Assembly: GCA_002238825.1 (NCBI GenBank)
Contig: MPNC01000010.1
Coordinates: forward strand, 1 to 64,000
Direction of reading: 5' to 3'
Origin: SAR202 cluster bacterium bin87
GTDB lineage: Bacteria; Chloroflexota; Dehalococcoidia; Lucifugimonadales; UBA3495
DNA length: 64,000 nt
Made by a program: the position numbers and the translations under genes. Numbering within the stretch: the first letter of the stretch is position 1; each line of letters opens with the position of its first letter. This document shows, one piece after another, positions 1-50,402 of this stretch. The notes under the pieces were generated by a model. It saw only the letters and a program-made list of their open reading frames with translations. It was not told the DNA's origin and did no database searches.

Positions 1-189
1 CTGCTGGTCGGTGGAACAACGCGCGTATCCGATGAGGGTTGCGGTCATGAGGGTTGCGGTCATGGGGGAAGTGTACGAATAGGGTCCCGCCCGCGCAATT
101 GTCTCCGTACCATTCATATGAGACGCTGCTGGCTCTGGTGTGGCGGAGGTCGGGGCGACAGGCTGGGCCGTCCGCTGGACGCTCCCCTT

Positions 190-485
190 ACGGACAGCGC
201 CGAGCCAACACCGGCCTGAACCAGGGCGAGGCTCATCACGCGCTCAAGAACGCGCTCCGGATCGGACGCCAGCGCGAAATCCGCTACCGCTCCAGCGACG
301 GCCAGCACTGCCGCATGGCTGGGCTCAACCTGCTCGCCGCCATCATCATTTACTGGAATACCGCCCATCTCGGAGCAGCAGTCAGACCGCGGAAACGCGT
401 CGGGCTGACCGTCGAGCCCGAGCTCCTGGCCCGCATCCCGCTCACCGGCGAATACCAGTGGCCAAAACGCCGATGGCGACCTTAG
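190..485 (+). pseudogene. Tn3-family transposase, C-terminal remnant (copy A)
   Basis: Only the last ~95 codons of a Tn3-family (DDE) transposase remain. The frame reads GLNQGEAHHALKNALRIGRQ, then EIRYRSSDGQHCRMAGLNLL and AAIIIYWNTAHL, the usual conserved C-terminal block, and ends LLARIPLTGEYQWP. The family's usual HISPLGW segment is missing here; copy B at 6.3 kb retains it, so copy A carries a small in-frame deletion. The full protein is ~1000 residues, so this is a relic. A 38-bp Tn3-like end follows immediately at 481-518. Confidence 0.75.
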
Positions 486-2141: not shown

Positions 2142-2698
2142 CTAACGAGGCCAGCGCAATGCGGCACGGGCGTCCAACCGCAGTCGGACGCCCATGCCAA
2201 TGGGTTCTATGATGGATCCGCGCTGGTCGTACAGGCGCGGGAGGAAGATGCCATCGTCCACCACAGACCCTGTTGCACCCGCCGTCATGGCGGTGTCCTC
2301 GTCCCCCACCAGCCAGAACGGGCCACCGCATTGCCCGACTTCGCCGTCTCCCCAATCCCACTCGTCAGCCGACACCAACCGATCCGAAACCTTTTTGGCC
2401 TATAGCCGAAGCGTCTGCCCCACGGCGGCGACCACGCGTCCGTCGGAACCGATCACCTCCACCACGCCGTCGCTGGTCCGCGTCCCGAAACCCATTGGCC
2501 ACACCACCATCAGGCCGTCCCGCGAGGCCTCGCGGTCAACCTGGTCAGAGTGGATATCCGCAAGCCGCCGCCGGCAATCGACAGCTCGCCATAGACGTAC
2601 TGATCGCCACGGTTGGCGGGAATTGCCTCTTCGTGGCGCGGGAACACCGCTCCTGCGGGCACGCCCGACGTTGCGCTGGCCACAGGAGAGGGCGTGGG
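2142..2698 (-). pseudogene. lipoprotein gene remnant, 5' end removed by TnpB element
   Basis: On the minus strand the frame from the element boundary reads ATPTPSPVASATSG, then QYVYGELSIAGGGLRIS. It shifts frame to DGLMVVWPMGFGTRTSDG and VVEVIGSDGRVVAAVGQTLR, meets TAG at 2400-2402, and continues AKKVSDRLVSADEWDW to a stop at 2142. The Thr/Pro linker followed by a small beta domain is typical of Chloroflexota lipoproteins. A frameshift, a nonsense codon and loss of the signal peptide at 2699 make it a pseudogene. Confidence 0.6.
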
Positions 2699-2810
2699 GG
2701 TTGCCAACTGTTCACGATTTGGTAGGTGATAGTAGGTCATGGTTGTTGATGGTCCGATCAGGCGATATGGGCTGGAAGTATCGGAACCCGCGTTCTGGTA
2801 CCCTATAGCC

Positions 2811-4436
2811 ATGGTGCTTGGCAAAAGGAACGGTCGCTCACCGACGCGAAGTGACATCGTTGGAAAGCGGTTGACCGCAACCTATCAGACGCGGGTCCGC
2901 GAGTACTCTGGTGTTGACCGTGAGGCTGGCGACGCGGCGTTATCGGCCTATGCCGAGCTTTATGGCCGGGTGGAGCGGAAGCTGTTTGCTGACGTTGCAG
3001 CCGGTCGGTCGGCGGGTTCGCTGAAGAGCGAGTGCCTGCAGCGGTACGGGATACCTGCCAGGATGTTCAACGCAGTGCGGGTGTCGCTGGAAGGGAAGGT
3101 GGCGTCAGTCAAGGAGCAGCAGAAGCCGCAGCTGGACAGCCTGTGCCGGCGGATTGCTCGGGCTGAGCGGCAGATTGCCGGCGCTGCTGAGCATGGACGG
3201 TGGGACCAGGTCCACCAGAAAAGGCACCGGTTGGCGAACTTGCAATCCCGGCTGGCGGCATTGGAAACCGACACGGAGGAGGCGCGGGTCAGGTTGTGCT
3301 TCGGGTCCAAGCGGCTCTGGCGTAAGCAACACAATCTCGAGACCAACGGTTACGCCAGCCACCAGGAATGGCTCAAAGACTGGCGGGAGGCTCGCAGCGA
3401 TGAATTCTTCGTGCTGGGCAGTCGTGACGAGACTGGCGGGTGCCAGTTGTGCGTGGCCAGTGTTGCTGATGACGGGACCATGACCCTGCGGCTTCGGATG
3501 CCGGATTGCCTCGCCACTCAGCATGGCAAATACTTGGCCATCGAAGGCGTGCGCTTCGCCTACGGCCACGAGCAGGTGCTGGCGGCGCTGGACAGCAACG
3601 CTGAGTACCGTCGTTACCGAGGCGAGCATGGTGATAAAGCGGCACGGGCCACCACTCTCAGTCAGGCCATCAGCTACCGGTTCAAGCGGGATCGCAAGGG
3701 CTGGCGGGTGTTCGTCAGTACCCAGATGATGGACGTGCCGGTGGTTACTGACCAAAGGCATGGGGCCATCGGCGTGGATTTGAACGTGGATCATCTGGCG
3801 GTTTGCGAAACCGATTCCAGCGGCAACTACATCAACGCGTTCAGTGTGCCGCTGGTGACCTACGGCAAGTCCCAGCACCAAGCTGAGGCCATCATCGGCG
3901 ACGCCGTGGCCAGCGTGGTGGAGCACGCCCGAGAGGTCGGCAAGCCCATCGTGATCGAGAAGTTGGACTTCCGGCGGAAGAAGGCGACACTCGAAGGTGA
4001 ATCGCACCGTTACAGCCGGATGCTGTCCAGCTTCAGCTACGGGAAGATCAAGGCGTACTTCCTGTCCCGCGGCAATCGCCAGGGAGTGGAAGTACATCAG
4101 GTGAGCCCGGCCTACAGCTCAGTGATAGGTCGGGTGAAGTTCATGGAGCGTTACGGGCTCAGCGTCCACCAGGCAGCGGCCTTGGTGCTGGCCCGACGTT
4201 TGCTCGGCTGCTCTGAGCGCATCCCCCGCCGCTGGGTTTGTCCCGTCGGCAATGACGTCCAGGTCGCCTTCACCGTACCTGCAAGGAAGCGCGTGAAGCA
4301 CGTGTGGACGCACTGGGGTGCGATCTCGGGACAGCTGAGACCGGCGCTTGCAGCGCAGCACCGGCTGGGGAAGCGGAGACGCCGACCCAATCCGGTTCAG
4401 GCTGTCGCGCGTGGTGAAACACGCGGGGTGGCTTGA
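2811..4436 (+). CDS. tnpB: TnpB-related RNA-guided nuclease, zinc-finger-less type
   Basis: 541 residues, about 80% identical by eye to the copy at 15.4 kb. It matches the lineage annotated as IS200/IS605 accessory TnpB-related protein. RuvC-I is AIGVDLNVDHLAV (Asp ~323) and RuvC-II is IVIEKLDFRRKK (Glu ~383). The RuvC-III region reads YGLSVHQAAALVLARR, with His where classical TnpB has Asp. The CxxC...CxxC zinc ribbon is absent; PAYSSVIGRVKFMERYG occupies the place of PxxTSxxCxxCG. An upstream in-frame ATG (2739) exists, but the second copy has a stop just before this ATG, so 2811 is the shared start. Family role: RNA-guided cleavage favouring element retention. Activity with a His-substituted site is inferred, not known. 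Confidence 0.85.
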   Translation: MVLGKRNGRSPTRSDIVGKRLTATYQTRVREYSGVDREAGDAALSAYAELYGRVERKLFADVAAGRSAGSLKSECLQRYGIPARMFNAVRVSLEGKVASVKEQQKPQLDSLCRRIARAERQIAGAAEHGRWDQVHQKRHRLANLQSRLAALETDTEEARVRLCFGSKRLWRKQHNLETNGYASHQEWLKDWREARSDEFFVLGSRDETGGCQLCVASVADDGTMTLRLRMPDCLATQHGKYLAIEGVRFAYGHEQVLAALDSNAEYRRYRGEHGDKAARATTLSQAISYRFKRDRKGWRVFVSTQMMDVPVVTDQRHGAIGVDLNVDHLAVCETDSSGNYINAFSVPLVTYGKSQHQAEAIIGDAVASVVEHAREVGKPIVIEKLDFRRKKATLEGESHRYSRMLSSFSYGKIKAYFLSRGNRQGVEVHQVSPAYSSVIGRVKFMERYGLSVHQAAALVLARRLLGCSERIPRRWVCPVGNDVQVAFTVPARKRVKHVWTHWGAISGQLRPALAAQHRLGKRRRRPNPVQAVARGETRGVA

Positions 4437-4580
4437 GCGGGGATCAGCTCGGTGTTCCCGGGTGAGTTTCCCGGGCGGAGCCGCCTTGCACTGTTGGGGC
4501 GGCGGCGCGGCTCAGACCGCGTCTCGAGGAATGGACGACAGCGGTCATGTAACCAAAGTCAACCATTTTTACAACGGTAT
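4437..4580 (+). ncRNA. predicted omega RNA (reRNA) at TnpB element 3' end, copy 1
   Basis: The non-coding 3' end is as conserved as the gene and foldable. Hairpin 1 is CCCGGG (4457-4462) with CCCGGG (4470-4475), separated by seven bases. The second copy has CTTGGG with CCCAAG at the same place, two compensatory changes. Hairpin 2 is GAGCCGC (4478-4484) with GCGGCTC (4507-4513). In TnpB systems the guide is the sequence just past the right end, here antisense to the tRNA-Gly 3' half. Confidence 0.65.
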
Positions 4581-4652
4581 GGAGCGGGGAATAGGAGTCG
4601 AACCCACGGCCTCCGCCCGGGCAGGGCGGCGCTCTACCACCGAGCCCCCCGC
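4580..4652 (-). tRNA. tRNA-Gly(GCC)-like gene lacking positions 8-9
   Basis: On the minus strand: acceptor GCGGGGG with TCCCCGC, D-arm GCTC-GGTGGTA-GAGC, anticodon arm CCGCC-CTGCCCG-GGCGG (anticodon GCC), T-arm loop TTCGACT, discriminator T and encoded CCA. Bases 8 and 9 between acceptor and D-stem are missing, and the T-stem has two G-T pairs. It may be a pseudo-tRNA, or a real one with a local sequence error. A TnpB element abuts its 3' end. Confidence 0.6.
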
Positions 4653-4664
4653 TCGGGATGAGGA

Positions 4665-5024
4665 TCATGCCTGTGGTAGCAGAGGCTCGAGCTTATCCAG
4701 TAGCGTCTCGACGTCTCGGATCCCGCGCTGGACCCGTCGGGCACGATACCAGTTTTCATAGAAATTGACGTGGAGCGCGCTGGCCACGTCGAAAAGCCGG
4801 TCGATCTCTTCGTCGCCGGTTTCGTCGCTGAGGTAGTCCACCGCTTCGAAGAGCAGATCGTGTGCACGATGTCTCCATCCGCGCTGTTCTGCGATGGCCT
4901 TGACCATCTGAGCGGCGGCGCCCCAGGCCTTCTCTGACGCCTGGCGCAGGTCCCCCGCGGCCAACTCAGTCTGAGCCTGGTTCAACAGTTGGCGGCTGGC
5001 TTGCTGGTACGTTTGGGTGGTCAT
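4665..5024 (-). CDS. PaREP1/HEPN-like protein, paralogue 1
   Basis: 119 residues, all helical. It resembles the PaREP1 family, HEPN-superfamily helical bundles found in archaea and bacteria. Shared blocks are LAAGDLRQASEKAWGAAAQM, VKAIAEQRGW and DVETLLDKLEPL. A close paralogue is at 43573-43929 on the other strand. Start: AGGAG four bases before ATG. No nucleotidyltransferase or obvious toxin partner is adjacent. Members often pair with antitoxins or act in RNA or stress pathways, but the role here is unknown. Confidence 0.75.
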   Translation of the reverse strand: MTTQTYQQASRQLLNQAQTELAAGDLRQASEKAWGAAAQMVKAIAEQRGWRHRAHDLLFEAVDYLSDETGDEEIDRLFDVASALHVNFYENWYRARRVQRGIRDVETLLDKLEPLLPQA

Positions 5025-14976: not shown

Positions 14977-15340
14977 GATCATCATTCCGACGCCGGAGGA
15001 GAACGCGGCCATCAACGCCGGCATTGCAGAGGACCCCGATGCTTTTGAGGCTGACGACGAGTGGTTCGCCACGGCCAAACCTTCCAGTGAGGCGGTACCC
15101 CATATTCTGGAGCGCTGTCGCCGAACACGAGGCAGACAGAAAGCTCCCACCAAGGAGCAGGTCCACATCCGGCTGGATGCGGATCTTGTCGAGCACTTTC
15201 GGCGTGGTGGCTGCGGCTGGCAGACCAGGCTGAACGAAACCCTGCGTGAAGCCGTATTCGGACAGGGCAGTGATGCCGTTGCAAAAATGGTTGATTTTAG
15301 TTACAGACTATCGTCAGCCATTCTTGAAGACGCGATCTGA
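14957..15340 (+). CDS. brnA: BrnA family antitoxin with C-terminus replaced by TnpB element
   Basis: The real start is MSSQRSKIIIPTPEENAAIN; the open frame before it is the brnT overlap. Blocks KEQVHIRLDADLVEHFRRGG and CGWQTRLNETLREAV are typical of BrnA, a ribbon-helix-helix antitoxin and autorepressor. After EAVFGQGS (codon ending 15272) the last ~22 codons lie in the right end of TnpB copy 2, so the native tail is gone. The DNA-binding and dimer region is intact, so it may still function. Confidence 0.75.
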   Translation: MSSQRSKIIIPTPEENAAINAGIAEDPDAFEADDEWFATAKPSSEAVPHILERCRRTRGRQKAPTKEQVHIRLDADLVEHFRRGGCGWQTRLNETLREAVFGQGSDAVAKMVDFSYRLSSAILEDAI

Positions 15341-15418
15341 GCCGCGCCGCCGCCCCAACAGTGCAAGGCGGCTCCGCTTGGGAATCTCACCCAAGAACAC
15401 CGAACAGGTCCCCGCTCA
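15273..15418 (-). ncRNA. predicted omega RNA (reRNA) at TnpB element 3' end, copy 2
   Basis: Hairpin 1 pairs the segments at 15390-15395 and 15377-15382 (CTTGGG with CCCAAG on the minus strand). These replace the CCCGGG pair of copy 1 by two compensatory changes. The GAGCCGC/GCGGCTC hairpin is unchanged. The guide beyond the right end would be antisense to the 3' coding part of brnA. Confidence 0.65.
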
Positions 15419-17026
15419 AGCCACCACGTGGGTAGCCTGAACCGGATTGGGTCGGCGTCTCCGCTTCCCCGGCCGGTGTTGCGCTGCAAGCGCCGGTCTC
15501 AGCTGTCCAGAGATCGCGCCCCAGTACGTCCACACGTGCTTAACTCGCTTCCTTGCAGGTACGGTAAAGGCGACTTGGACGCCATTGCCGGTGGGACAGA
15601 CCCATCGGCGCGGGATGCGCTCGGAGCAGCCGAGCAAGCGTCGGGCCAGCACCAGGGCCGCGGCCTGGTGGACGCTGAGCCCGTAACGCTCCATGAACTT
15701 GACCCGGCCAATCACCGAACTGAAGGCCGGGCTCACCTGTTGTACTTCCACTCCCTGCCGGTATCCGCGGGAGAGGAAGCACGCCTTGGTCTTGCCGTAG
15801 CTGAAAGATGAAAGCATCCGGCTGTACTTGCGGGACTCGCCCTCCAAAGCGGCTTTCTTCTGCCGGAAGTCCAGCCTCTCGATGACGATGGGCTTGCCCG
15901 CCTCGCGGGCGTAGGCCGCCACGGTGGCAACGGCGTCGCCGACAATGGCCTCGGCCTGGTGCTGCGACTTGCCGTAGGTGACCAACGGCACACTGAAAGA
16001 GTGCAGCGGATTGCCCGACGCGTCGGTTTCCGCCACCGCCAAGTGGTCGGCGTTCAGGTCCACGCCGATGGCGCCACGCCGGTGGTCCGTTACTACCGGC
16101 ACGTCCATCATGTGGGTGGTGGCGAACACCCGCCAACCCCTCTCGTCCCGCTTGAACCGGTAGCTGATGGCCTGACCCAGTTCGGTCTCGCGCACTGCCT
16201 GTTCCCCATGCTCACGCCGGTGCCGAGCGTACTCAGCGTTGTTGCCCAACGCGGCGAGCATCTGCTCGTGACCGTGGGTGAAGCGCACGCCCTCGATGGT
16301 TAGGTACTTGCCATGCTGTACCGGCAGGCAGTCCGGCATCCTGAGCCGCAGGGTCAGCGTGCCGTCATCAGCCACGGTGGCCACGCAGAGCTGACACCCC
16401 GCCGTCTCGTCCCGGCTGCCCAGCACGAAGAACTCGTCGCTGCGCACCTCACGCCAGTCCCTGAGCCATTCCTCGTGGCTGCCGTAACCGTTGACCTTGA
16501 GGTGGTGCTGCTTACGCCACAGCCGCTTCGACCCGAAACACAGCCGCACCCGCTCCTCCGCAATGTCATCTTCCAGTGCAGCCAGCCTGTGTCGAAGACT
16601 GGCCAACCGCCGTTTCTTCTGGTGAACCTGATCGAGGCGGCCATGTTCGACGGCATCGGAAACCTGCCGCTCAGCCCGAGCAATCCGCCGGCCCAGGCTG
16701 TCCAGCCGCAGCTTCTGCTGCTCCTTGACCGACGCCACCTTGCCTTCCAGCGACACCCGCACTCCGTTGAACTTCCTGGCCGGTATCCCGTATCGCTTCA
16801 GGTACTCGCTCTTCAGGGACGTGGCCGACCGGCCAGCCAACACTGCGGCGAACAACTTCCGTTGCACGCGACCGTAAAGCTCGCCGTAAGCCGATAACGC
16901 CGCGTCGCCAGCCTCAAGATCAGTGCCCGCGTACTCGCGGACCCGCGTATGATAGGTTGCGGTAAACCGCTTTCCACCGGAGCTACTTTGAGTAGATGAC
17001 CGGACGTTCCTTTTGCCGAGTACCAT
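15416..17026 (-). CDS. tnpB: TnpB-related RNA-guided nuclease, zinc-finger-less type
   Basis: 536 residues. RuvC-I is AIGVDLNADHLAVAETD (Asp323), RuvC-II is IVIERLDFRQKK (Glu383), and the RuvC-III region is YGLSVHQAAALVLARRLLG with His453 at the usual Asp place. There is no zinc ribbon. The basic C-terminus (PGKRRRRPNPVQ) is shared with copy 1. Differences from copy 1 are spread over the whole protein while length, motifs and the 3' RNA stay intact. That suggests separately maintained elements rather than a recent duplication. Confidence 0.85.
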   Translation of the reverse strand: MVLGKRNVRSSTQSSSGGKRFTATYHTRVREYAGTDLEAGDAALSAYGELYGRVQRKLFAAVLAGRSATSLKSEYLKRYGIPARKFNGVRVSLEGKVASVKEQQKLRLDSLGRRIARAERQVSDAVEHGRLDQVHQKKRRLASLRHRLAALEDDIAEERVRLCFGSKRLWRKQHHLKVNGYGSHEEWLRDWREVRSDEFFVLGSRDETAGCQLCVATVADDGTLTLRLRMPDCLPVQHGKYLTIEGVRFTHGHEQMLAALGNNAEYARHRREHGEQAVRETELGQAISYRFKRDERGWRVFATTHMMDVPVVTDHRRGAIGVDLNADHLAVAETDASGNPLHSFSVPLVTYGKSQHQAEAIVGDAVATVAAYAREAGKPIVIERLDFRQKKAALEGESRKYSRMLSSFSYGKTKACFLSRGYRQGVEVQQVSPAFSSVIGRVKFMERYGLSVHQAAALVLARRLLGCSERIPRRWVCPTGNGVQVAFTVPARKRVKHVWTYWGAISGQLRPALAAQHRPGKRRRRPNPVQATHVVA

Positions 17027-17138
17027 GGCTACAGGATACCAGAACGCGGGTTCCGATACTCTCAGCCCATGTCACCTCATCGAACCGTCAACAACCATAG
17101 CGTACTATCACCTACTAAATCTCGAACAGTTGGCAACC

Positions 17139-18107
17139 CTACAGGTACCTGAGCGCTGACCCGGCGGTTTCGCCGCGGGTGTAGCGGCCGACCATGCCGC
17201 CGCCCTGTTTCCAGCGGCCCTGGCGTTCGATCTCGTGGGTGGGGGCGCCGTTCTGGGCCATACGCCGGGCCATGCCGACGCGCCCGCTGTGGCCGCTGAA
17301 GAACTCCCAGTTCTCCAGCCCCGCGGCCCGGGCGATGGCCTTCACCCGCCGGGCGATCTGCGACTCCGACACCCCGAACACCTTCTCCCCGCCGGCCACC
17401 CCCGCCGGCCGGATGGCGGAAAGGGCCTTCATCGCGGCGGGGGTGATAGCGACGGTGGCGCCCTGGGCCTCGACGTCGGTCTTCGAGCGAATGACGGTGA
17501 TGCGGCCCGAGCCGTCCTCCCAGCCCTGCACGTCGCCCCAGGTCAGCGCGGCCGCCTCGGAACGCCGCAATCCTGCGTCGGACAGCACGGCCACCAATGC
17601 CACGTCAAACTGCCCTCTTTCCTCGGCCTGCTTCGCCGTCTCGAACCCGCGGCCTCGCCGTCTGGGCTGGACGGCGGTGAGGCGGATCACGGCGAGCACG
17701 TCGGCGGTGAGGGCGCCGGACTGGCGCTGGGGTTTCGAGAGGCGCCGTCCCCATCCCTTCAGGGAGGCGCGCACACCCGGGTCCCGGCAGGGAGACTCCA
17801 GCTTCGCCCACTCGTGCGCTTTCGAGATGGCGGAGGTAGCCAGGCGCAGGGTGGCGATGGAGGCGTCGGAGTTTGCCCGGGCGGCCAGGTAGCGGGCCAC
17901 GGTGAGGGGCTCGGCGGGCAGGGACGTGAGGCCCACCTCGTCGCACCAGCCGGTGAAGATGCGCCACTGGGTCCCGTAGGTCCGGCGAGTGTTGTCGGCG
18001 AGTACTGACTCCAGAGACGAAGCCACGCCCTGGTCGGCGGCCCGCAGCGCCGGCGCCGACGGAGTCTGCTGGGGAACTATCTGCGAGTGGCTGGCGGCGG
18101 TGGTCAT
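17139..18107 (-). CDS. tyrosine recombinase (phage-integrase family)
   Basis: 322 residues. The N-terminal SAM-like core-binding domain is at ~30-125 (NTRRTYGTQWRIFTGWCDEV). In the catalytic domain: Arg181 in SDAGLRRSEAAAL, Lys209 in SKTD, HxxR at His273-Arg276 in FSGHSGRVG, Trp299 in GRWK, and nucleophile Tyr309 in GRYTRGE. All catalytic positions are present, so it should be active. GGAG precedes the start by seven bases. No attachment site or cargo boundary is evident. The TnpB element begins right after its stop codon. Confidence 0.88.
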   Translation of the reverse strand: MTTAASHSQIVPQQTPSAPALRAADQGVASSLESVLADNTRRTYGTQWRIFTGWCDEVGLTSLPAEPLTVARYLAARANSDASIATLRLATSAISKAHEWAKLESPCRDPGVRASLKGWGRRLSKPQRQSGALTADVLAVIRLTAVQPRRRGRGFETAKQAEERGQFDVALVAVLSDAGLRRSEAAALTWGDVQGWEDGSGRITVIRSKTDVEAQGATVAITPAAMKALSAIRPAGVAGGEKVFGVSESQIARRVKAIARAAGLENWEFFSGHSGRVGMARRMAQNGAPTHEIERQGRWKQGGGMVGRYTRGETAGSALRYL

Positions 18108-24486: not shown

Positions 24487-26373
24487 ATGAAACGCATACT
24501 TGCTCCTGCCGTCGTCTTCATACTGCTGGCCACCATCGTTGCTGCTGGCGGGTTGACCCTTTCCGGCATCGTCCTCGCCGAGCAGAACGGCGTGCCGCCC
24601 GTCAGCAACTTTGCGGTTTGCAGCGGGCCACAAGCGGGCGAGGTCATCATCTCCTGGGACTCCGTGCCCCAAGCCACCTACTACCGCATCGGATACGTCA
24701 ACATGGTGAAGGACTATCCCCGGGCCAAGGCTAGCGCGACGGGCGAATGGATTGAGGCTTTCGTCTATGTTGACGTGAACGCGCGGAACATCCCGGTGAG
24801 CGGCGGGCGGGGACAGTACGCCCTGCGCCGGCTGGTCCAGGGCGACCGTCACGCCTTCACCGTGCTGACCAGCAACAACGTGGTCAACACGGCTGAGACC
24901 ATCAGCGGCGCGTACTCTTGGCCCCAGAACCCGCGCTGGGAGTTTTTGACGGTTGCCGACCCGGAGCCTGGTTGCACTGACGCCACAGCGGGACCTGCAG
25001 CTGCTCCAACCTCACCGCCCGAAGGTGATTACGACGTCGACAACGACGGGCTTGTTGCGATATCCAACCTGGCGCAACTGGACGCCATGAGGCACGATCT
25101 GGACGGTGATGGCTCAGCCACCCACCCGGACTATGCCTTGGCCTTCCCCAATGCCCTTGCAGACATGGGCTGCCCGGGTACGGGTTGCATCGGATACGAG
25201 CTAACCGCCAACCTGGATTTTGACACCAACGGCAGCGACCATGCCGACGCCGGTGATGCTTACTGGAACGGCGGATGGGGCTGGACGCCTATCGGCGATC
25301 CTGATGAATCATTCCGCTGGAACGCGGTTTTCGACGGTGGCGGGCATACCATCTCCAACCTGTACATCGATTGGGGAGATACCAACCACGTCGGGTTGTT
25401 CCGGGCTACCGGCTCCGACAGCGAGATTCGAAATGTGGGGCTGGATGCGGTTAATGTAACCGGCAACACCGGCGTGGGAGGCCTGGTCGGCAGCAATAAC
25501 GGTGCGATCGCCAGCAGCTATACTACAGGCAAAGTCACCGGCAATGGCAGTTCTGTAGGCGGCTTGGTCGGAGGCAGCCACGGGGCAATCGCTGACAGCT
25601 ACTCCACTGCCAATGTATCCGGCAAAGGCAATGATGTCGGCGGCCTGGCAGGTAGTATCGGCGGTGATGTTGCAATCACTGCCAACTATGCTACCGGGGA
25701 CGTCGCCGGCGAGGGCGATTACGCCGGCGGGTTGATCGGAAGGAATGGCAACAACGTTGCAATCACCGCCAGTTATGCTACCGGCAACGTGTCCGGCAAG
25801 AACTACGTGGGTGGCCTGGTAGGGAGCAGTAACCCGGGCAGCAGCATCAGAGCCAGCTATGCAATGAGCCATGTAACGGGCCGCTACAGTGTTAGGCGCT
25901 TTCGCACCAGTGGAAACGTAAGGTCTGTGTCGCACGGCGAAAATATCGGTGGCTTGGTTGGTTATAGCAATGACACTGCGATCAGCGCCAGCTACGCCAT
26001 GAGTACCGTATCCGGCGGCGACACGGCAGTCGGCGGTCTGGTTGGCGGCACCTCTGGTGGAGCGGTTGTAACCAGCTACTCTGCTACTGGAGGAACGTAT
26101 AACTATGCGTCTGAAGGCAGGTTGAAGAGCGCACGTGTTGGAGGTTTGACCGGCCAAACTGACGACGAAACCTCCTTCACTGACAGTTATTGGGACACCC
26201 AAGTTGCCGGGCTAACGGGCGGAAGAGGTAAGACCACACGCGAGTTGCAAGCACCCACCGCCAACACCGGCATCTATGTCAACTGGAGCCCGGACTGGTG
26301 GGATTTTGGCACGGTGCGCCAGTACCCGGCACTGAAGTACGGCGGCCTGGACGTTGCCCGCCAGCGCCGATAA
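24487..26373 (+). CDS. surface protein with FN3 module and GLUG repeats
   Basis: 628 residues from MKRILAPAVVFILLATIV, with GAGGAG about ten bases upstream. Signal peptide ~1-28; FN3-like module ~33-160 (GEVIISWDSVPQATYYRIGY); a DxDxDG segment ~178. A beta-helical region of GLUG motifs spans ~325-560 (GGLVGSNNGAIASSYTTGKV, GGLVGGSHGAIADSYSTANV and more). GLUG repeats occur in bacterial adhesins and surface proteins. There is no sortase or PEP-CTERM anchor. An adhesive or matrix role is inferred. Confidence 0.8.
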   Translation: MKRILAPAVVFILLATIVAAGGLTLSGIVLAEQNGVPPVSNFAVCSGPQAGEVIISWDSVPQATYYRIGYVNMVKDYPRAKASATGEWIEAFVYVDVNARNIPVSGGRGQYALRRLVQGDRHAFTVLTSNNVVNTAETISGAYSWPQNPRWEFLTVADPEPGCTDATAGPAAAPTSPPEGDYDVDNDGLVAISNLAQLDAMRHDLDGDGSATHPDYALAFPNALADMGCPGTGCIGYELTANLDFDTNGSDHADAGDAYWNGGWGWTPIGDPDESFRWNAVFDGGGHTISNLYIDWGDTNHVGLFRATGSDSEIRNVGLDAVNVTGNTGVGGLVGSNNGAIASSYTTGKVTGNGSSVGGLVGGSHGAIADSYSTANVSGKGNDVGGLAGSIGGDVAITANYATGDVAGEGDYAGGLIGRNGNNVAITASYATGNVSGKNYVGGLVGSSNPGSSIRASYAMSHVTGRYSVRRFRTSGNVRSVSHGENIGGLVGYSNDTAISASYAMSTVSGGDTAVGGLVGGTSGGAVVTSYSATGGTYNYASEGRLKSARVGGLTGQTDDETSFTDSYWDTQVAGLTGGRGKTTRELQAPTANTGIYVNWSPDWWDFGTVRQYPALKYGGLDVARQRR

Positions 26374-26557
26374 CCTCGGTGGCGGGATTTGACAATCGCG
26401 ATTGGTGGTGGTGGTGCGCTTGGTACTTGCCCCTAACCCCCAATCCACCGAAAGGATGAGTGTGGCGGCGTGATGCAGGGATGAGAAAGTGCTCCCGGCT
26501 TCGGGGTTAATGGTTTTTGAAACAAGAAACCAGCCCGAAACGAGGAGCACCCAACGG
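26374..26557. other. non-coding segment before IS1380-like remnant
   Basis: May include the lost left end of the IS. No gene supported. Confidence 0.35.
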
Positions 26558-26815
26558 ATGCCACCGCCTGAGCACCCCGACCGCATCCACGTTGCCTTTG
26601 ATGACTACCTCCTGGTGGCCAATGCCGGATTGCTGTTGCCGGTCGCCTTGGCCCGCCACCTGGGACTGGTGGATCGCAACGTTGACTTGGACCACGCCCC
26701 CGGGCAAGCCAACGCCGGCGACAAGATGCAGATCCTTCCCGAATTGCTGCTACGGTTGCATCTTCTTCCGATACTTCTCCGCCGTTTGATGGAGGTCAGC
26801 CATCTACACGGCTGA
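26558..26815 (+). pseudogene. IS1380-family transposase, N-terminal remnant
   Basis: MPPPEHPDRIHVAFDDYLLV continues NAGLLLPVALARHLGLVD, then VDLDHAPGQANAGDKM, the usual N-terminus of IS1380 DDE transposases. After GDKM the reading diverges and stops within ~30 codons, so the catalytic domain is missing. A purine-rich GAGGAG precedes the start. Confidence 0.6.
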
Positions 26816-27035
26816 ATTTGCCATCGCCGTTCACATTATGTTGGCAACCACGCTGGTACTGCGTTTGGTTCGCCCAACATCCATTACATCGGGCAGGGCG
26901 GACTGGTCCGTGACGACGGCGCCCGCGATCCGGCTGATGAGCAGCCGTGGCCACATTGGTTCGGGCAGACATAGGCCTCGTCCGGGCCGTCACGCCGGCG
27001 GTCCAGAGACCGGCCGCAGCTTCCGCTCTGATCAC
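26816..27035. other. intergenic, IS-flank debris
   Basis: No supported gene. It contains a ~30-bp string (near GGTTCGC.CAAC.TCCATTAC) that recurs approximately at 44090. Confidence 0.3.
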
Positions 27036-27521
27036 TTACCTACGGTTTGTGCCTGGCTCTTCGGGCATTTCTTGGCCGGACTGGCGAGACTCCCGAAATT
27101 GCGCGTCGTCCAGTATCTCGAATGTGGTCTGCGGATTAATCGACAGCTGGTCTTCGTCACGGGTGATCAAGCATTCGGCCATGCCCGTGATGGCCAGATC
27201 AATGAATTTCTGGTCACTCGTGTCCCTGCATTGGGGAGCGTTTTCGGGCACTGAGAGTTCCACCGTCTCGCACCACGGTTCGTAATGGGCCATTGCCCTT
27301 CTGACGAATTGTCGCGCGCGCATCGGATGTGGGGTCGGGCTGTGGCGGAGGAGTGGCTCCCTCAGTTCGGTCATCGTTTCGGCATTTACAAGCGGCTTGA
27401 TTATCCCTGACTTCCAGAGTTGCACCAGCCAATGGTTGTCGATGCCCTCGTGGGTCAGTATCGGGACGGTTACGCTGCTGTCTATCACTGCTCTTAGCTG
27501 AGGGCTACGCGGCTCCCTCAT
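27036..27521 (-). CDS. PIN-domain putative ribonuclease
   Basis: 161 residues. PIN features: AVIDSSVTVPIL (Asp14) near the N-terminus, an acidic residue in ETMTELREPL, DTSDQKFIDLAI, and CLITRDEDQLS, giving the usual Asp/Glu cluster. PIN proteins are Mg-dependent RNases, often toxins. Its ATG overlaps the TGA of the upstream TPR gene by four bases, a tight operon. No classical antitoxin is present, so the TPR protein may be the partner. Confidence 0.75.
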   Translation of the reverse strand: MREPRSPQLRAVIDSSVTVPILTHEGIDNHWLVQLWKSGIIKPLVNAETMTELREPLLRHSPTPHPMRARQFVRRAMAHYEPWCETVELSVPENAPQCRDTSDQKFIDLAITGMAECLITRDEDQLSINPQTTFEILDDAQFRESRQSGQEMPEEPGTNRR

Positions 27522-28318
27522 CCATATGCCTGCTGCATTTCTGCATCGAATTGGAGATCTTCCAGTTCGGCGGCTTTCCTGAAGTCCGAGTAGGCGTGTT
27601 GCAGGCGGCCCATCTCTTCGAGTGCGATGCCGCGGTTTTGGTACAGCAGTGGGTTGTTGGGGTCCAGCAGGACTGCTGCGTCGAACAGGTCATGGGCTTT
27701 GGCCGGCAATCCCACTTCCAGGAAAAGGACACCAGCGTTGTTGTAATGGATCGGATCGTCGGGCGCCAGTTCCAGTGCCTGCAACAAGTCAAGGCGGGCG
27801 GCCTCGAACTCTTCTTTCTCGATGAGGGTCAGGGCGCGGTTGGTGTAGGCGATGTCGAGGTCCGGCTCCAGGCGGATCGCCATGTTCAGATGGACCAGCG
27901 CATTCTCGACGTCGCCGATTTCCAGGTAGAGCAGACCGATGTTGTTGTACGGCAGCGCGAAGTCTTCGTCCTGCGCTATGGCTGCCATGAAGTTGCGGAA
28001 GGCCCCGGGGTAGTCCTGCATATTCAGGCACTGCATACCCAGGTTGTTGCGTCGCAGGGCCAGTTCGTCGGTGGGAATCTCGTACTCTCTGTACGGCTGT
28101 TGCATGAGGTAGAGGCCACGGCCCGCCTTCGCAATCCGCAGCATGATGTCGTCCTGCCTTCCCGGTGGTGCATGGACGTTCAGTTGCAACAGCGCCGCGC
28201 GGCTTCTCCGGTGGAACTGAGAGGCCCAGTCAGGGACGCTCGCCGGCAGTGGAACGTCATCTCCTTCCACGGGCTTCGGGAACCGTCGGTAGTTGTAGTC
28301 GCTGCGCACGTGTCTCAT
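27518..28318 (-). CDS. tetratricopeptide-repeat protein
   Basis: 266 residues. A polar N-terminus (~1-85) is followed by about five TPRs (~88-260), such as ALPYNNIGLLYLEIGDVENA, IAYTNRALTLIEKEEFEAAR and IHYNNAGVLFLEVGLPAKAH. It has no signal peptide and is probably cytosolic. TPRs mediate protein binding. The four-base overlap with the PIN gene suggests joint translation and perhaps control of the PIN RNase. GGAG lies ~10 bases upstream of the start. Confidence 0.8.
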   Translation of the reverse strand: MRHVRSDYNYRRFPKPVEGDDVPLPASVPDWASQFHRRSRAALLQLNVHAPPGRQDDIMLRIAKAGRGLYLMQQPYREYEIPTDELALRRNNLGMQCLNMQDYPGAFRNFMAAIAQDEDFALPYNNIGLLYLEIGDVENALVHLNMAIRLEPDLDIAYTNRALTLIEKEEFEAARLDLLQALELAPDDPIHYNNAGVLFLEVGLPAKAHDLFDAAVLLDPNNPLLYQNRGIALEEMGRLQHAYSDFRKAAELEDLQFDAEMQQAYG

Positions 28319-28414
28319 CGTTGCCGCGCTCCGCGCTGGTGGGGTAGTTGAGGCTTTTCAGATCACGTTTCCACCGTTCAGTATCTGTTTTGGTACGATC
28401 GGTTCATTGATGAT

Positions 28415-28720
28415 CATTTGCCCAATTATCGCGCGGCGAACGAAAGTGCGCAAGCGGATGCGAGACGGCGGTTTCACCGTCGTTTGCCTGACCACCGGAG
28501 GCCGCGAAACCGCTCGTCGCGGAGGACCGCCGTGGTCCGCCCGCGGCGGAGCGCCGGATCCTGCCGCGGGAACACGTCGTCAACCGCCCGGGCGGCGGCG
28601 GCGACGAATGGATAGGCATCCATTGCAATGGTATCCATACCTGTCCATTGGAATGGACGGCGGCATGGATTGGATTGGTTACCAATCCAATTGAGTCCAT
28701 TGCATACCATTGGGTGGGAT
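28415..28720. repeat. palindrome-rich intergenic repeat, copy 2
   Basis: It shares ATTATCGCGCGGCGAACG, TTTCACCGTCGTTTGCCTGA and the CCATT/AATGG palindrome cluster (28615-28712) with copy 1. It contains the near-perfect hairpin GGATTGGT-t-ACCAATCC. The middle ~90 bp differ between copies. Confidence 0.6.
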
Positions 28721-28807
28721 TGCGTGCCGGGCGCCCTCCCGGGATAACCGCAAAGGGGCGCCGGAGGGTTTCACTACAATCCGGTTGACGCGACCAATCA
28801 CCCGGAG

Positions 28808-29029
28808 GTGAAGACCGTGCCCCAATGTGTTGCCTGCGGCGCCGAGCTGGAGCCGCCCGTGCGTGTGCCCCACACCATCTACGTCAAGAAGCTCTACCGG
28901 ATCGGCGGCCAGGACTACTGCCGCCATCACGTCATCAGGCCCTCGGTGGCCGCCGGCGTCATCGCCGAGGTCAGAGCCGGCGCCGGACCAGTGGCGCCAG
29001 TTTCCCGGGGAGTAGTAGGTCCGCCGTAA
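28808..29029 (+). CDS. small zinc-binding protein, 73 aa
   Basis: VPQCVACGAELEPPVRVPH, then QDYCRHHVIRPSVAAGVI. A CxxC knuckle and a later CxxH can bind zinc, as in the 51-residue protein at 5659. It starts at ATG (28808) or the GTG three codons later; GGAGG lies just upstream (CCGGAGGTGAAG). It sits right after the palindromic repeat. Function unknown. Confidence 0.55.
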   Translation: MKTVPQCVACGAELEPPVRVPHTIYVKKLYRIGGQDYCRHHVIRPSVAAGVIAEVRAGAGPVAPVSRGVVGPP

Positions 29030-29363
29030 CGTGCCCGACGCCGTGTCCATATGGACTGGTATGCGTCATCACCCATCACTTGTCCTGAAGATCAGAACCG
29101 CCGAGATCAAGTCTTGGCCCATGCCGGAGAACGGGTAGAACAGACCGTCGTTGTCCACTCCGGCAAACGAGCGGTCAAGCAGCCGCGCAGTGTCGTCGCT
29201 GGGAGGTGACTGATGCCGGGCATGCCGATGGGCGCGGCGCCGGTCAACAACGTCCTCAGGATGGTGCACGGCGACCTCTCCACAGCTCCGTCAGCCGGCC
29301 TTTTGGTATCATCAAACGCGCGCCCGTTTCCGTTTCGTCACGGCCGGCCATAGGAATGATGAA
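29030..29363. other. intergenic, no supported gene
   Basis: A 66-codon minus frame (29069-29269, GTG start, GGAGAG upstream) exists but has no family likeness and is not called. The region should carry the promoter of the ATPase/PIN pair. Confidence 0.4.
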
Positions 29364-30620
29364 ATGACCGATACCTACACCCTCCATTTACATAATTTCA
29401 GGTCGATCCGGGACGCCAAAGTTGAAATAGCGCCGCTGACCGTGGTGTACGGTCCAAACGGCTCGGGCAAGTCCTCGCTGATCTACGGCCTGCTGACGCT
29501 GAAGAACTTCCTGACCAATCCCAGTCAGAACCTGGCCAGCCTGTTCTCCTACCCGTCAATCAGCCTGGGCGGGTGGCAGGAAGTCGTGCATCGCCACGCT
29601 GTGGACAAGGAAGTGTCGCTCTCCATCGGCTTCTCAAACAATACAGAGGACTTTTCCCCCAGGTTCACCCTGACGCTGGGTCAATCCGGTGGATCCGCCG
29701 AGGTGGCTTTTGAAATTATTGACCGCGACCACATCCCCGTATGGCCCGAACGCCTGGACCTGTCCATAGCGATCCCCTACGACGCCAATCAACAGGTCGA
29801 CCACAACGTCAAAATGGTTGGGGAGAGCGGGTCCGCCAGTCTGGAAGGTACGCTGATCTGGAACGGCATAGCGCTTTCGACCCAAACGTCCGGCGGTCCC
29901 GGCGAACTTCCCGTTCTGGTCAGATTGCTCAACGAGAGAATCAACCTGCCGATGGAGTTGGCGAGACAGACCGGGTTCGTGCCGCTGCGGCGCGGATTTT
30001 CAAAGCCGACCTATGGTCTGTCCAGCGTGACATCCGCGCTGGCCACCGAGGATGAGGTCGCCTCTCTATTGGCATCGACCAGCGAGAGGTTCCGGCAGTA
30101 TGACGTCAGCAGATACATTGAGCGCATTGCGCATCGGCGGGTGATGACCCAGGCTCAGATCGGCACGTCGGTGTTCACCATTGACTCCATACCAACCGGC
30201 TCCGGAGTGGCGGCTTCGATCGTCAACGAGGGCTTCGGGATCAACCAGCTGCTGTATCTGCTGACCATCTGCCTGTACTCCCCGTTCAAAATCGTGGCGA
30301 TTGAGGAGCCCGAAATCCACCTTCATCCGTCGATGGTGAGAGAACTCGCCCGCGCGATGGTCACAATCGCCGCCAACGAGGACCGGCGGCTGATCGTATC
30401 CACCCACAGCGAGGTGTTCGTCACCGCGCTATTGGCACAGATCGCGGCAGGCGAGGCCAGCGTTGACGACATCTCATTCATCCTGGCGGAGAACCGGGAT
30501 GGGGAGAGCACGTTCACGCCGCAGAGGGCGACGCCGGACGGACAGATTGAAGGAGGGCTGGGAGCGTTCATGGCGTCGGAGGTCGGAGACCTGGCGGCGC
30601 TGCTGGGCATCAGTGATTAG
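29364..30620 (+). CDS. AAA ATPase of the RecF/OLD-like (AAA_15/AAA_21) type
   Basis: 418 residues. N-terminal HNFRSIRDAKVEIAPLTVVY leads to Walker A GPNGSGKSS (30-38, Lys36). The C-terminal half has the ABC-like signature region and Walker B IVAIEEPEIHLHPSMV (~307-322) followed by the switch His in RLIVSTHSEVFVTALL. There is no fused TOPRIM or nuclease domain. Proteins of this shape are the sensor ATPases of several anti-phage systems (OLD/Gabija-, PARIS- and Septu-like). The PIN-like gene begins 17 bases downstream and probably supplies the effector. Confidence 0.85.
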   Translation: MTDTYTLHLHNFRSIRDAKVEIAPLTVVYGPNGSGKSSLIYGLLTLKNFLTNPSQNLASLFSYPSISLGGWQEVVHRHAVDKEVSLSIGFSNNTEDFSPRFTLTLGQSGGSAEVAFEIIDRDHIPVWPERLDLSIAIPYDANQQVDHNVKMVGESGSASLEGTLIWNGIALSTQTSGGPGELPVLVRLLNERINLPMELARQTGFVPLRRGFSKPTYGLSSVTSALATEDEVASLLASTSERFRQYDVSRYIERIAHRRVMTQAQIGTSVFTIDSIPTGSGVAASIVNEGFGINQLLYLLTICLYSPFKIVAIEEPEIHLHPSMVRELARAMVTIAANEDRRLIVSTHSEVFVTALLAQIAAGEASVDDISFILAENRDGESTFTPQRATPDGQIEGGLGAFMASEVGDLAALLGISD

Positions 30621-30637
30621 GGGAAGGCCTGCCGGCC

Positions 30638-31099
30638 ATGTTACTGGTACTGAATGAGTGGGTGTTCCACGACCTGCTGTTCGATAACGGTGATCCGGCC
30701 TTTCGGGAGACGGCGCGGTTTCTGATAGCGTTGCAGGCATCCGAAGACGTTCTGGTCATCCCGGCCGAGGAACGGTGGAAGCGAAAGGCATTCCAGCTCA
30801 TGACAATGTCCGACACGCGCCGGAGACTGATCAGCAGGTTGTTGCACAGCCTGCTGCGGAATTCGGACCGTACCATTCGCATTCAACCCGAGGAGAACCC
30901 GCAGATCCCCCAGGAACTGCTCGACCTGCTGCCCCGCGAGGACGTCTACCTGGTGCAGGCTTACGTCGCAGCCGGGGCGGACCTTCTCGTCACCACTGAC
31001 CAGGGACTTTACTGTGCCATCGGTGATCACGGTGTCGTCAACTGCCGGATGCGCGAAGACTTCCTGGCGGAGTATCCATCGCCAAGCAGCAGCAAGTGA
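30638..31099 (+). CDS. PIN-like putative effector nuclease
   Basis: 153 residues: MLLVLNEWVFHDLLFDNG, a helical middle, then LPREDVYLVQAYVAAGADLL and VTTDQGLYCAI. The spacing of acidic residues (Glu7/Asp12, Glu100-Asp101, Asp121) and the VTTD strand resemble PIN-domain RNases, although the canonical first Asp motif is weak. It follows the AAA ATPase by 17 bases on the same strand and should be cotranscribed. A two-gene ATPase-nuclease module is inferred. Confidence 0.65.
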   Translation: MLLVLNEWVFHDLLFDNGDPAFRETARFLIALQASEDVLVIPAEERWKRKAFQLMTMSDTRRRLISRLLHSLLRNSDRTIRIQPEENPQIPQELLDLLPREDVYLVQAYVAAGADLLVTTDQGLYCAIGDHGVVNCRMREDFLAEYPSPSSSK

Positions 31100-31118
31100 A
31101 TCATCGGAGTGGACCACC

Positions 31119-32588
31119 ATCAAGAGCCGGACCATCATAGCCTTCGCAGTTTTGCTGTTAGTTGTCATCTGCGCGGTAGCAAGCCAGCATTCCCCGCCGG
31201 TATCGGTCTCGGCGCAGGGGCCGAACCCGGGCGGCGGCGGGGCACCCGTTCCGGCTGATGGCATCTTCAGCCGCAGCACCTCTGCCCATGCCAACGTGAA
31301 GTTGCGATTGACCGTAGGCAGCCTGCCCGCAGACATGGCCGTCGGCAGCTCCGTGGAATTGTATCTGGAGGACGACTTCCAGGTGCCGGACGCGGTCGGC
31401 TCAAGCAGTGTGTACTTCGTGCTTGCCAACCCGACTTCTCGCCAAACCGGTTCTGGCGCCCGCATCTACGCCGCTAACGCAGCGGTGATACGCGACGGTC
31501 CTCATCTGGGGGGCAACCGTGACTGGTCTCTACAGGTGACCATTCCCGATTTGTGCACCAGCCCGGCCAACGAGTGCGCAGGCCCCAATGGACCCATGCA
31601 GGGACAGACGCTGACGCTGGTTATCGACGATGACGCTGGCATCAAGAACCCCAGCGAGGCGGGCAGCTACCGAGTGGGCTACTCGCTGCTTGGTCCGGCA
31701 GATGATGGCAACCGGGGACCGGAATTTCTTCTGGAAGACTTGCCGATCAATGCGAAGATTTCCCTGTCCGATGCTGACAACAGACGCGGCTATGCGCTCA
31801 CTGTGACCGGGTCGGGCTTCAACGACGGAACCGCCGCCGAGGTGTACGTCCTGCACGATCCGGGCGTGGGCGCTGACGCGTTTGACAACGGCGCCAACGA
31901 GGCCGCCCTATGCGAGAGGATCGTTCAATGGGGTACCCAGGTCGGCGGGGCTCCAGTAAGCAGTGATGACCGGGTTTCGGTCACCTTCAAGGTTGCGGCG
32001 CCGACCTTCGCTCCCGGAAACGCCAACTATATCTGCATGGTTGACGGCGAAGGCAGAATGTCTCAAACCGACGTGGAGCGGTTCCACCTGGAGCCTTCGA
32101 TTCGCGTCAGCCCATCCACTGTCCGGGCTGGCGACGCTGTCACCATCTTTGCGCACGATTTTCCCAACGCAGGAGCCGGGTTCACCGAGCTGGAACTGGC
32201 TGGCCGAACGGCGGCCGCCTCAGTGACCAGTTGGAGCTTCATCAGCGGCGATGCCTCCGCCACGGCGACGTTCACCGTTCCCGACGATCTGGTGGGCGCC
32301 GTCAGCGTGGAAGCCGCCTGGGGTGAAACTTCCACGAGCGCCAGTTTGACCATAGTTGATCCAGACCAATCGCCGGTGCCCGAACCGGGTTATCCGCCCC
32401 CGGTCACAAACATCGCGATGCGCGACGGCAGTCAGCCCGGAGAAGTGGTCATCGCCTGGGATGCGGTACCGGAAGCGACCCATTACCGCATCGGCTACGT
32501 GAATATGGTTGCGGACTATCCCCTGGCCAAGGCCAGCCAGACCGGCAACTGGCTGGAGGCCTTTGTCTATGTGGATGTGGAAGCGTAG
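31119..32588 (+). CDS. FN3/IPT/LRR surface protein, N-terminal part (ends at in-frame TAG)
   Basis: The mature-looking start would be KSRTIIAFAVLLLVVICAVA, a classic signal peptide, but the codon before it (31119-31121) is ATC, not ATG. GGAG lies nine bases upstream. The only in-frame ATG is at 31014, inside the PIN gene. IPT-like domains follow (ISLSDADNRRGYALTVTGSG), close to those at 20.5-22.6 kb, then a fibronectin-like module cut by TAG at 32586-32588. The frame continues past TAG. Start loss plus nonsense suggests decay; readthrough is the alternative. Confidence 0.65.
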   Translation: MKSRTIIAFAVLLLVVICAVASQHSPPVSVSAQGPNPGGGGAPVPADGIFSRSTSAHANVKLRLTVGSLPADMAVGSSVELYLEDDFQVPDAVGSSSVYFVLANPTSRQTGSGARIYAANAAVIRDGPHLGGNRDWSLQVTIPDLCTSPANECAGPNGPMQGQTLTLVIDDDAGIKNPSEAGSYRVGYSLLGPADDGNRGPEFLLEDLPINAKISLSDADNRRGYALTVTGSGFNDGTAAEVYVLHDPGVGADAFDNGANEAALCERIVQWGTQVGGAPVSSDDRVSVTFKVAAPTFAPGNANYICMVDGEGRMSQTDVERFHLEPSIRVSPSTVRAGDAVTIFAHDFPNAGAGFTELELAGRTAAASVTSWSFISGDASATATFTVPDDLVGAVSVEAAWGETSTSASLTIVDPDQSPVPEPGYPPPVTNIAMRDGSQPGEVVIAWDAVPEATHYRIGYVNMVADYPLAKASQTGNWLEAFVYVDVEA

Positions 32589-32757
32589 AACTTCACGGTG
32601 GTTGGAGGCCGGACCGAATACACCGTCCGCCGGCTGGCGCAGGGAGTGCGTCACGCGTTCACGGTGAGGACCGGCAATTCTCCCTATGGCGACTACACCT
32701 GGCCCAGCAATCCCCACTGGAAGTTCCACACGGTGGCTGATCGGGGTGGCGCCTGTC
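32420..32757 (+). repeat. 338-bp direct repeat encoding an FN3-like module (unit 1)
   Basis: Nearly identical to 32981-33318, at a 561-bp period (187 codons). Unit 1 has TAG where unit 2 has CAG. Confidence 0.9.
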
Positions 32758-50360: not shown

Positions 50361-50398
50361 CGGATCGATTCCGGTAGGGGGCAGAAGCGTACGCTAAG
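50361..50398 (-). repeat. Tn3-like terminal inverted repeat (copy C)
   Basis: Inverted relative to copies A and B. On the minus strand it starts CTTAGCGTACGCTTC. The element body lay to the right. Confidence 0.7.
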
Positions 50399-50402
50399 GC
50401 CG

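What the first reader, a model, noticed from the sequence alone, without database searches (positions are those of the whole stretch)
4437..4580. Compensatory base changes prove a folded RNA at the TnpB 3' end
At the same place copy 1 has CCCGGG/CCCGGG and copy 2 has CTTGGG/CCCAAG. Two base pairs changed on both sides with pairing kept. A second stem (GAGCCGC/GCGGCTC) is invariant. Together with its position past the stop codon, this is direct evidence for an omega-RNA-like transcript.
Basis: seen in the sequence. Interest (0 to 1): 0.65.

Follow-up and report, generated by a model that had tools for sequence, protein, structure and literature searches.

The report
Folded guide-RNA scaffold of IS607-type transposon
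The 3' end of this transposon's TnpB-like gene encodes a strongly conserved folded RNA that very probably serves as the guide-RNA scaffold of an RNA-guided DNA-targeting protein with an unusual active site; the general kind is known, but this RNA and protein type look uncharacterised.

Summary
The first stem is real. Copy 1 (4457-4462/4470-4475) reads CCCGGG/CCCGGG and copy 2 CTTGGG/CCCAAG; in 28 aligned copies 21 keep all six pairs and 19 hold at least one two-sided change that keeps pairing. The fold is larger than reported, about 258 nt (4320-4577), running about 115 nt into the tnpB coding sequence. The single-sequence fold of copy 1, tested on 15 other copies, gave 47 kept two-sided changes against 12.5 in a tree-based null (0 of 1000), and fewer A-C mismatches than expected on the tnpB strand, as for RNA of that strand. 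Seven coding windows showed no excess of two-sided changes. The RNA ends at the right end of an IS607-type element (GG ends, IS607 transposase in a sister copy), its last hairpin 7 nt from the end, as in known omega-RNAs. The protein lacks the zinc finger and has His where TnpB has its third catalytic Asp (26 of 28 family members). Transcription, processing and cleavage are untested. Verdict: very probably an omega-RNA-like scaffold, a new variant of a known kind.

The parts
2698..4577 (+). IS607-type element, copy 1 (tnpB-like gene only, no tnpA), GG at both ends
   Evidence: Similarity between copies starts and stops here; a relative (G010) has the left flank uninterrupted
2811..4436 (+). 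TnpB-like protein, 541 aa; RuvC residues D323, E383, H453; no zinc finger
   Evidence: AlphaFold2 model mean pLDDT 79.3
4320..4577 (+). Predicted folded RNA scaffold (omega-RNA-like), overlapping the last ~115 nt of the coding sequence
   Evidence: Fold and covariation
4357..4456 (+). Long-range helix 4357-4363/4450-4456 joining coding sequence to the stretch after the stop; two-sided changes in L036a and L038
   Evidence: pair table; alignment
4392..4441 (+). Hairpin spanning the stop codon, with a variable apical hairpin (4408-4425)
   Evidence: pair table; alignment
4457..4475 (+).
4480..4503 (+).
4504..4523 (+). Stem C; in several copies a different CCGC/GCGG stem at the same place
4527..4570 (+). 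Right-end hairpin with two internal loops; ends 7 nt before the element end; one inner pair is A-U in 8 and G-C in 7 of 18 copies
4578..4597 (+). Predicted guide stretch (host DNA after the right end; overlaps the 3' end of a tRNA-Gly gene)
   Evidence: Inference from known TnpB guide position; tRNA at 4580-4654 on -
15276..17139 (-). Copy 2 of the element, tnpB-like gene 15416-17026, inserted just after a tyrosine integrase gene
15276..15517 (-). Copy 2 of the RNA scaffold (CTTGGG/CCCAAG version of stem A)

Best explanation
The stretch 4320-4577 encodes the scaffold of a guide RNA (omega-RNA, also called reRNA) of an IS607-type element. Inferred mechanism: transcription through tnpB continues past the right end; the structured 3' part of the transcript (at least five hairpins, about 258 nt) is bound by the TnpB-like protein and probably trimmed from the mRNA; the host sequence after the terminal GG serves as guide, directing the protein to DNA carrying the element-free site next to a GG-ending motif and so favouring retention of the element. 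Shown here: conserved, strand-specific RNA structure; its place at the element end; a TnpB-family protein on the same strand; GG ends and an IS607 transposase in a sister copy. Inferred: transcription, processing, protein binding, guide use, cleavage. Because the third RuvC residue is His and the zinc finger is missing, cleavage may be weak or altered.
For: Single-sequence fold of copy 1 tested on 15 other copies: 47 kept two-sided changes against null 12.5 +/- 5.4 (0 of 1000), kept fraction 0.60 against 0.36 (0 of 1000); new A-C mismatches 30 against 61 (5 of 1000 as low) while new G-U 70 against 67, favouring a single-stranded RNA of the + strand. Tail only, 20 copies with tnpB remains: 36 against 5.6 (0 of 500). 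Seven coding control windows: two-sided changes not significantly above null; 4320-4577: 36 against 11.2 (0 of 300). A covariance model of the tail found 18 matches in 8 of 14 genus genomes and 20 in 5 of 5 genomes reached through loci. Last hairpin 7 nt from the scaffold end, matching the conserved feature reported for TnpB omega-RNAs (PMC10278001 passages). IS607 transposase NF033518, 179.7 bits, cut-off 110, in the C40 copy. All 8 left ends recovered are preceded by G, giving GGGTTG/GGGCTG, and 15 of 19 right ends read CAACGG, fitting the GG target of IS607 (PMC6188088 passages). NCBIfam TIGR01766 above cut-off in copy 1.
Against: No transcript data. In the 12 copies added later, the excess of two-sided changes was not significant (12 against 6.7, 77 of 500), though the kept fraction was (0.56 against 0.31, 2 of 500). 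The model of the tail found nothing convincing in the records of four more distant relatives (best E 0.26). guided_TnpB (NF040570) scores 54.7 and 30.2, below its cut-off of 100. The canonical third Asp and zinc finger are absent. No complete empty site was found. Copy 2's tail alone folds little better than shuffles (z -1.14).
Confidence: 0.82

Rival explanations
1. The hairpins are DNA features of the transposon end (transposase binding sites), not RNA.
For: They lie at the right end of a mobile element, and the last hairpin is subterminal like IS200/IS605 right-end hairpins.
Against: Pairing tolerates G-U but avoids A-C on the tnpB strand, a strand bias that a DNA hairpin would not give; helices reach over 100 nt into the gene; the IS607 transposase is a serine recombinase whose ends carry short directly repeated motifs (PMC6188088 passages).
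Confidence: 0.05
2. The RNA is a guide for a binding protein rather than a nuclease: a naturally weakened TnpB that represses or marks targets, as TldR and Cas12m2 do.
For: RuvC-III His instead of Asp in 26 of 28 family members and no zinc finger; nuclease-dead TnpB relatives that regulate genes exist (PMC13418256 passages), and Cas12m2 with an HDD site binds without cutting (PMC10442227 passages).
Against: Asp and Glu of RuvC-I and -II are kept in 28 of 28; natural RuvC resolvases with His at the third place are active (PMC3834835 and PMC9228767 passages); the gene still travels in a multi-copy element next to its right end.
Confidence: 0.2
3. The structure is an mRNA terminator or stability element of tnpB without guide function.
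For: It sits at the 3' end of the gene and the last hairpin has a T-rich 3' arm.
Against: No terminator-like site in 4000-4800 (0 found, 0.4 expected); in copy 2 the scan's only hit within the tail is not this hairpin; a ~258 nt multi-hairpin fold reaching into the gene is more than a terminator needs.
Confidence: 0.05
4. Chance GC-rich pairing plus shared ancestry.
For: GC-rich sequence; two copies and a palindromic CCCGGG arm are weak by themselves; the shuffles of the counting tool are liberal for related sequences.
Against: Tree-aware null 0 of 1000 and coding control windows.
Confidence: 0.02

Closest known systems
omega-RNA / reRNA of IS200/IS605 and IS607 TnpB (PMC10278001 and PMC10711439 passages; PMC8612924 search listing only)
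   Same: Same strand as tnpB, 3' end of the gene into the right end, hairpin-rich, last hairpin within 10 nt of the scaffold end, length within the reported 79-466 nt range
   Different: Sequence and fold match no Rfam family up to E 1; expression not shown
RAGATH-18-derived RNA of IS607 TnpB (PMC11061315 passages)
   Same: Structured RNA at the 3' side of an IS607 tnpB; G-rich sequence at the junction
   Different: No Rfam match; here the RNA overlaps the coding sequence, whereas RAGATH-18 reRNA is reported to be independent of it; those TnpBs average 390 aa
Non-canonical TnpB clade with RuvC-III rearrangement (RIII-r4, PMC10278001 passages)
   Same: TnpB-family protein with an altered RuvC-III motif
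   Different: Whether this protein belongs to RIII-r4 could not be told; the defining survey (doi 10.1073/pnas.2308224120) is not held
Cas12k / Cas12f / ISDra2 TnpB by fold
   Same: Model matches Cas12k 8rdu (Z 16.0, rmsd 9.2, 392 aligned), Cas12f1 9i8y (Z 14.9, rmsd 6.2, 328 aligned) and ISDra2 TnpB 8exa (Z 13.3, rmsd 6.2, 286 aligned)
   Different: No zinc finger, His at RuvC-III; CRISPR arrays nearby were not looked for
Thermus/Deinococcus RuvC resolvases with His as third active-site residue (PMC3834835, PMC9228767 passages)
   Same: D-E-H arrangement; RuvC region of the model matches 4ep5 (Z 13.1, rmsd 2.6, 126 aligned) with spacing that would put H453 at H143 (inference from range ends)
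   Different: Those are Holliday-junction resolvases; Deinococcus RuvC has a further Asp three residues on (His139, Asp142), where this family has Ala

Membership tests
TnpB omega-RNA | Encoded on the tnpB strand from the gene's 3' end to the right end, with a sharp drop in conservation where the guide begins | tested here: met
   Alignment of 20 tails: conserved to ...CAACGG, unrelated afterwards
TnpB omega-RNA | Conserved secondary structure with covariation | tested here: met
TnpB omega-RNA | Stem-loop within 10 nt of the scaffold's 3' end | tested here: met
   Last hairpin ends at 4570, element end 4577; criterion from PMC10278001
TnpB omega-RNA | Transcribed, processed and bound by TnpB; guide directs target recognition next to a TAM | not testable with these tools
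   No RNA or protein data; left flanks share only G before the element
IS607 family | Serine-recombinase TnpA of IS607 type | tested here: met
   C40 copy NF033518 179.7 bits against cut-off 110; L031 PF00239 61.5 bits, L033 no Pfam match. The two window copies carry no tnpA
IS607 family | GG at ends and target, no target-site duplication | tested here: inconclusive
   GG ends fit; no complete empty site found, so absence of duplication was not shown
Canonical TnpB nuclease | RuvC D-E-D triad | tested here: not met
   D and E in 28 of 28, third residue His in 26 of 28, Asp in 2 (L046, L064); canonical control L053 has Asp
Canonical TnpB nuclease | CxxC..CxxC zinc finger between RuvC-II and -III | tested here: not met
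   0 of 28 family members; control L053 has two CxxC
TnpB/Cas12 superfamily | Shared overall fold including the RuvC domain | tested here: met
   AlphaFold2 model, pTM 0.57; matches Cas12f, Cas12k and TnpB across residues 20-468
RAGATH-18 reRNA | Rfam covariance-model match | tested here: not met
   No such match up to E 1 in window 2600-4800 or six loci
TldR (nuclease-dead TnpB repressor) | Inactivated RuvC and association with a cargo gene | tested here: inconclusive
   Asp and Glu kept, third residue changed; cargo association was not surveyed

The most novel reading that the evidence does not exclude
A widespread, zinc-finger-less lineage of TnpB-like proteins uses a D-E-H RuvC site (as Thermus/Deinococcus RuvC does) with its own large guide-RNA family overlapping the gene's 3' end, and the stand-alone 3' ends without tnpB found in these Chloroflexota genomes are guide RNAs served in trans.
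Probability: 0.15. Interest if true: 0.65.

Novelty: new variant of a known kind. Interest (0 to 1): 0.42.

Why it matters
TnpB elements are held to be the source of Cas12 and of compact genome editors. A guide-RNA scaffold supported by covariation lets the zinc-finger-less, D-E-H TnpB lineage be reconstituted and tested: if it cuts, a His-type RuvC works in an RNA-guided nuclease; if it only binds, it is a transposon-borne repressor. The alignment also gives the guide boundary needed for such tests.

Tried and rejected
RAGATH-18 or any other Rfam family on the tail: no match. Intrinsic terminator: no supporting site. Empty donor sites: joined flanks of copy 2 hit only the separate flanks and many integrase genes; joined flanks of copy 1 gave an uninterrupted left flank in G010 but not the tRNA side. 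Stand-alone tails as conserved functional guides: two-sided changes in 8 such tails were not above null (10 against 6.1, 84 of 500), orthologous pairs carry arm-breaking changes, and 18-base guide patterns of two of them found no second site within 2 mismatches in their genomes; most look like decaying remnants, so trans action stays a possibility only. Guides of the two window copies: no second match of 14 of 16 bases or better within the window. Family spread: 9 of 60 relatives, 2 of 294 class genomes and 9 of 400 phylum genomes sampled matched the protein, own genome counted. Cas12m2 parallel: its site is HDD, changed at the first and second residues, so not the same change. Families missing from the fold list were not taken as excluded.

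Dropped rows: the main tree test left out L036b (cut by a contig end) and L015 (atypical right end), so 16 of the 18 extended sequences were counted; alignment A1 holds 18 of the 20 tails extracted (L036b and L042 left out). Of the viral-contig relatives, L063, L066, L069 and L074 (one split, three duplicates or near-duplicates) were left out of the 28-protein count. One search used 12 of the tails found by the model and left out weak or partial ones (L082, L090, L097, L101, L109, L111, L112) and the C39 tail. One coding control window (4010-4269) had a high kept fraction (0.53 against 0.37, 5 of 300) without extra two-sided changes (8 against 8.1).

Papers: searches listed no paper that I recognised as being about this element; only the held open-licence library was searched. 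PMC10442227, PMC11061315, PMC6188088, PMC10278001, PMC13418256, PMC3834835 and PMC9228767: passages only; PMC10711439: passages and one section; PMC8612924: search listing only. Trans-acting guide RNAs of IscB are recalled, not read.

Full report
The finding concerns the 3' end of a TnpB-like gene. The window holds two copies of one element, 2698-4577 (+) and 15276-17139 (-), 82-86% alike. The window's genome has a third copy on contig C40 and an isolated 3' end on C39. Named relatives are metagenome assemblies of Dehalococcoidia, Caldilineaceae and other Chloroflexota.

Stem 1 is as described: CCCGGG/CCCGGG in copy 1 and CTTGGG/CCCAAG in copy 2. In 28 aligned copies, 21 keep all six pairs, 4 break one, 3 break more, and 19 hold at least one two-sided change that keeps pairing. 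Copy C40 reads CTTGGG/CCCGGG, an intermediate held by two G-U pairs; L033, L034 and L035 among others read CCCTGG/CCAGGG, a different compensated change. The conserved hairpin uses 4480-4487/4496-4503.

The fold is larger than reported. The single-sequence fold of 4320-4580 of copy 1 is more stable than all 200 shuffles (z -3.79), while the tails alone are weaker (z -2.09 and -1.14). It begins about 115 nt before the end of the coding sequence; the stop codon (4434-4436) lies inside a hairpin arm. Coding-side helices also show compensation, for example 4360-4453 (A-U to G-C in one copy) and 4361-4452 (C-G to A-U and to U-A).

To avoid circularity I took the fold of copy 1 alone and counted what happens at its pairs in 15 other copies. 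The null kept each column's parsimony number of changes and placed them on the tree of the copies. Observed: 47 two-sided changes that keep pairing, against 12.5 +/- 5.4 (0 of 1000); kept fraction 0.60 against 0.36 (0 of 1000). A-C mismatches on the tnpB strand were 30 against 61 expected (5 of 1000 as low), while G-U pairs were as expected (70 against 67). This asymmetry points to RNA from the tnpB strand rather than a DNA hairpin. Two cautions: the region overlaps a gene, and the null is approximate. Counting only pairs in the tail after the stop, the excess remains (46 against 11.7, 0 of 500, 28 copies). Seven coding windows analysed identically show no excess of two-sided changes.

In 12 copies added later the kept fraction was again high (0.56 against 0.31, 2 of 500), but the two-sided count was not significant (12 against 6.7, 77 of 500). 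The signal sits mainly in copies with tnpB remains (36 against 5.6, 0 of 500, 20 copies) and is weaker in 8 tails without a tnpB match (10 against 6.1, 84 of 500). That is what loss of constraint after losing the gene would give.

The element is IS607-type. The C40 copy carries a transposase matching NF033518 with 179.7 bits (cut-off 110). Every one of 8 recovered left ends is preceded by G, giving GGGTTG or GGGCTG (the first G of the motif itself was required by my pattern). Fifteen of 19 right ends read CAACGG. IS607 inserts at GG without duplication (PMC6188088 passages). In G010 the gene interrupted on the left of copy 1 continues unbroken at the expected point; the right side abuts a tRNA-Gly gene (4580-4654, -) and no full empty site was found.

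The protein matches NCBIfam TIGR01766 above cut-off in copy 1 (36.7 against 32) and slightly below in copy 2 (29.8); guided_TnpB is below cut-off in both; Pfam gives nothing above cut-off. Its AlphaFold2 model (mean pLDDT 79.3) matches Cas12k, Cas12f and ISDra2 TnpB across residues 20-468. In 28 family members (10 close, 18 distant) RuvC-I Asp and RuvC-II Glu are invariant, the third position is His in 26 and Asp in 2, and none has a CxxC between RuvC-II and -III; a canonical TnpB in the same alignment has Asp and two CxxC motifs. Natural RuvC resolvases of Thermus and Deinococcus have His at the third place and are active; changing it to Asp raised the activity of the Thermus enzyme (PMC3834835, PMC9228767 passages). 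The model's RuvC region aligns with Thermus RuvC over 317-468 against 1-158, which by spacing puts E383 and H453 at E70 and H143 and D323 near the first Asp (inference; no coordinates were available to me). So the site may well be active, perhaps attenuated. TnpB clades with altered RuvC-III are already known (RIII-r4, PMC10278001 passages); I could not tell whether this is one of them, because the classification paper is not held.

Compared with known guide RNAs: position, strand, length (about 258 nt within the reported 79-466) and the 3' hairpin 7 nt from the end match TnpB omega-RNAs. No Rfam family matches. It differs from RAGATH-18 reRNA, which is reported to lie wholly outside the coding sequence.

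This is very probably the guide-RNA scaffold of an IS607-type element with a non-canonical TnpB. Structure and position are shown; transcription, processing, guide use and cleavage are inferred.

Noticed in passing
L104/L105, L107/L110, L100/L108, L086, L089, L081, L091, L112: 3' ends of the element without a full tnpB in the held flank (L081 keeps only the last 38 codons); similarity often starts at element positions 1623-1665 (window 4320-4362), near the start of the RNA fold; three pairs look like the same loci in two genomes, G695 and G697. L100 and L108 have only 224 and 270 nt of contig upstream.
   Followed up: partly
window 4580-4654 (-): tRNA-Gly (gcc) gene whose 3' end lies 2 nt beyond the right end of copy 1, so the predicted guide overlaps it; the stretch is about 76-79% alike to places in other genus genomes.
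   Followed up: partly
window 17142-18107 (-): Tyrosine integrase (PF00589) with copy 2 inserted directly after its stop; its 3' end has nine further similar places in the genome.
   Followed up: no
L003 1-870: The C40 element appears to be inserted into or beside a canonical zinc-finger TnpB gene on the opposite strand (read by eye).
   Followed up: no
window 54-485 and 50361-50451: Remnant of a Tn3-family transposase (PF01526); part of it recurs inverted at 50361-50451.
   Followed up: no
L059-L074 (IMG/VR contigs): Contigs classed as viral encode zinc-finger-less relatives of this protein (23-43% identity), nearly all with the RuvC-III His.
   Followed up: partly
window 24608-33727: Direct repeats of 300 nt (three copies) and a 72-nt-spaced repeat that looks like leucine-rich repeats by eye.
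   Followed up: no
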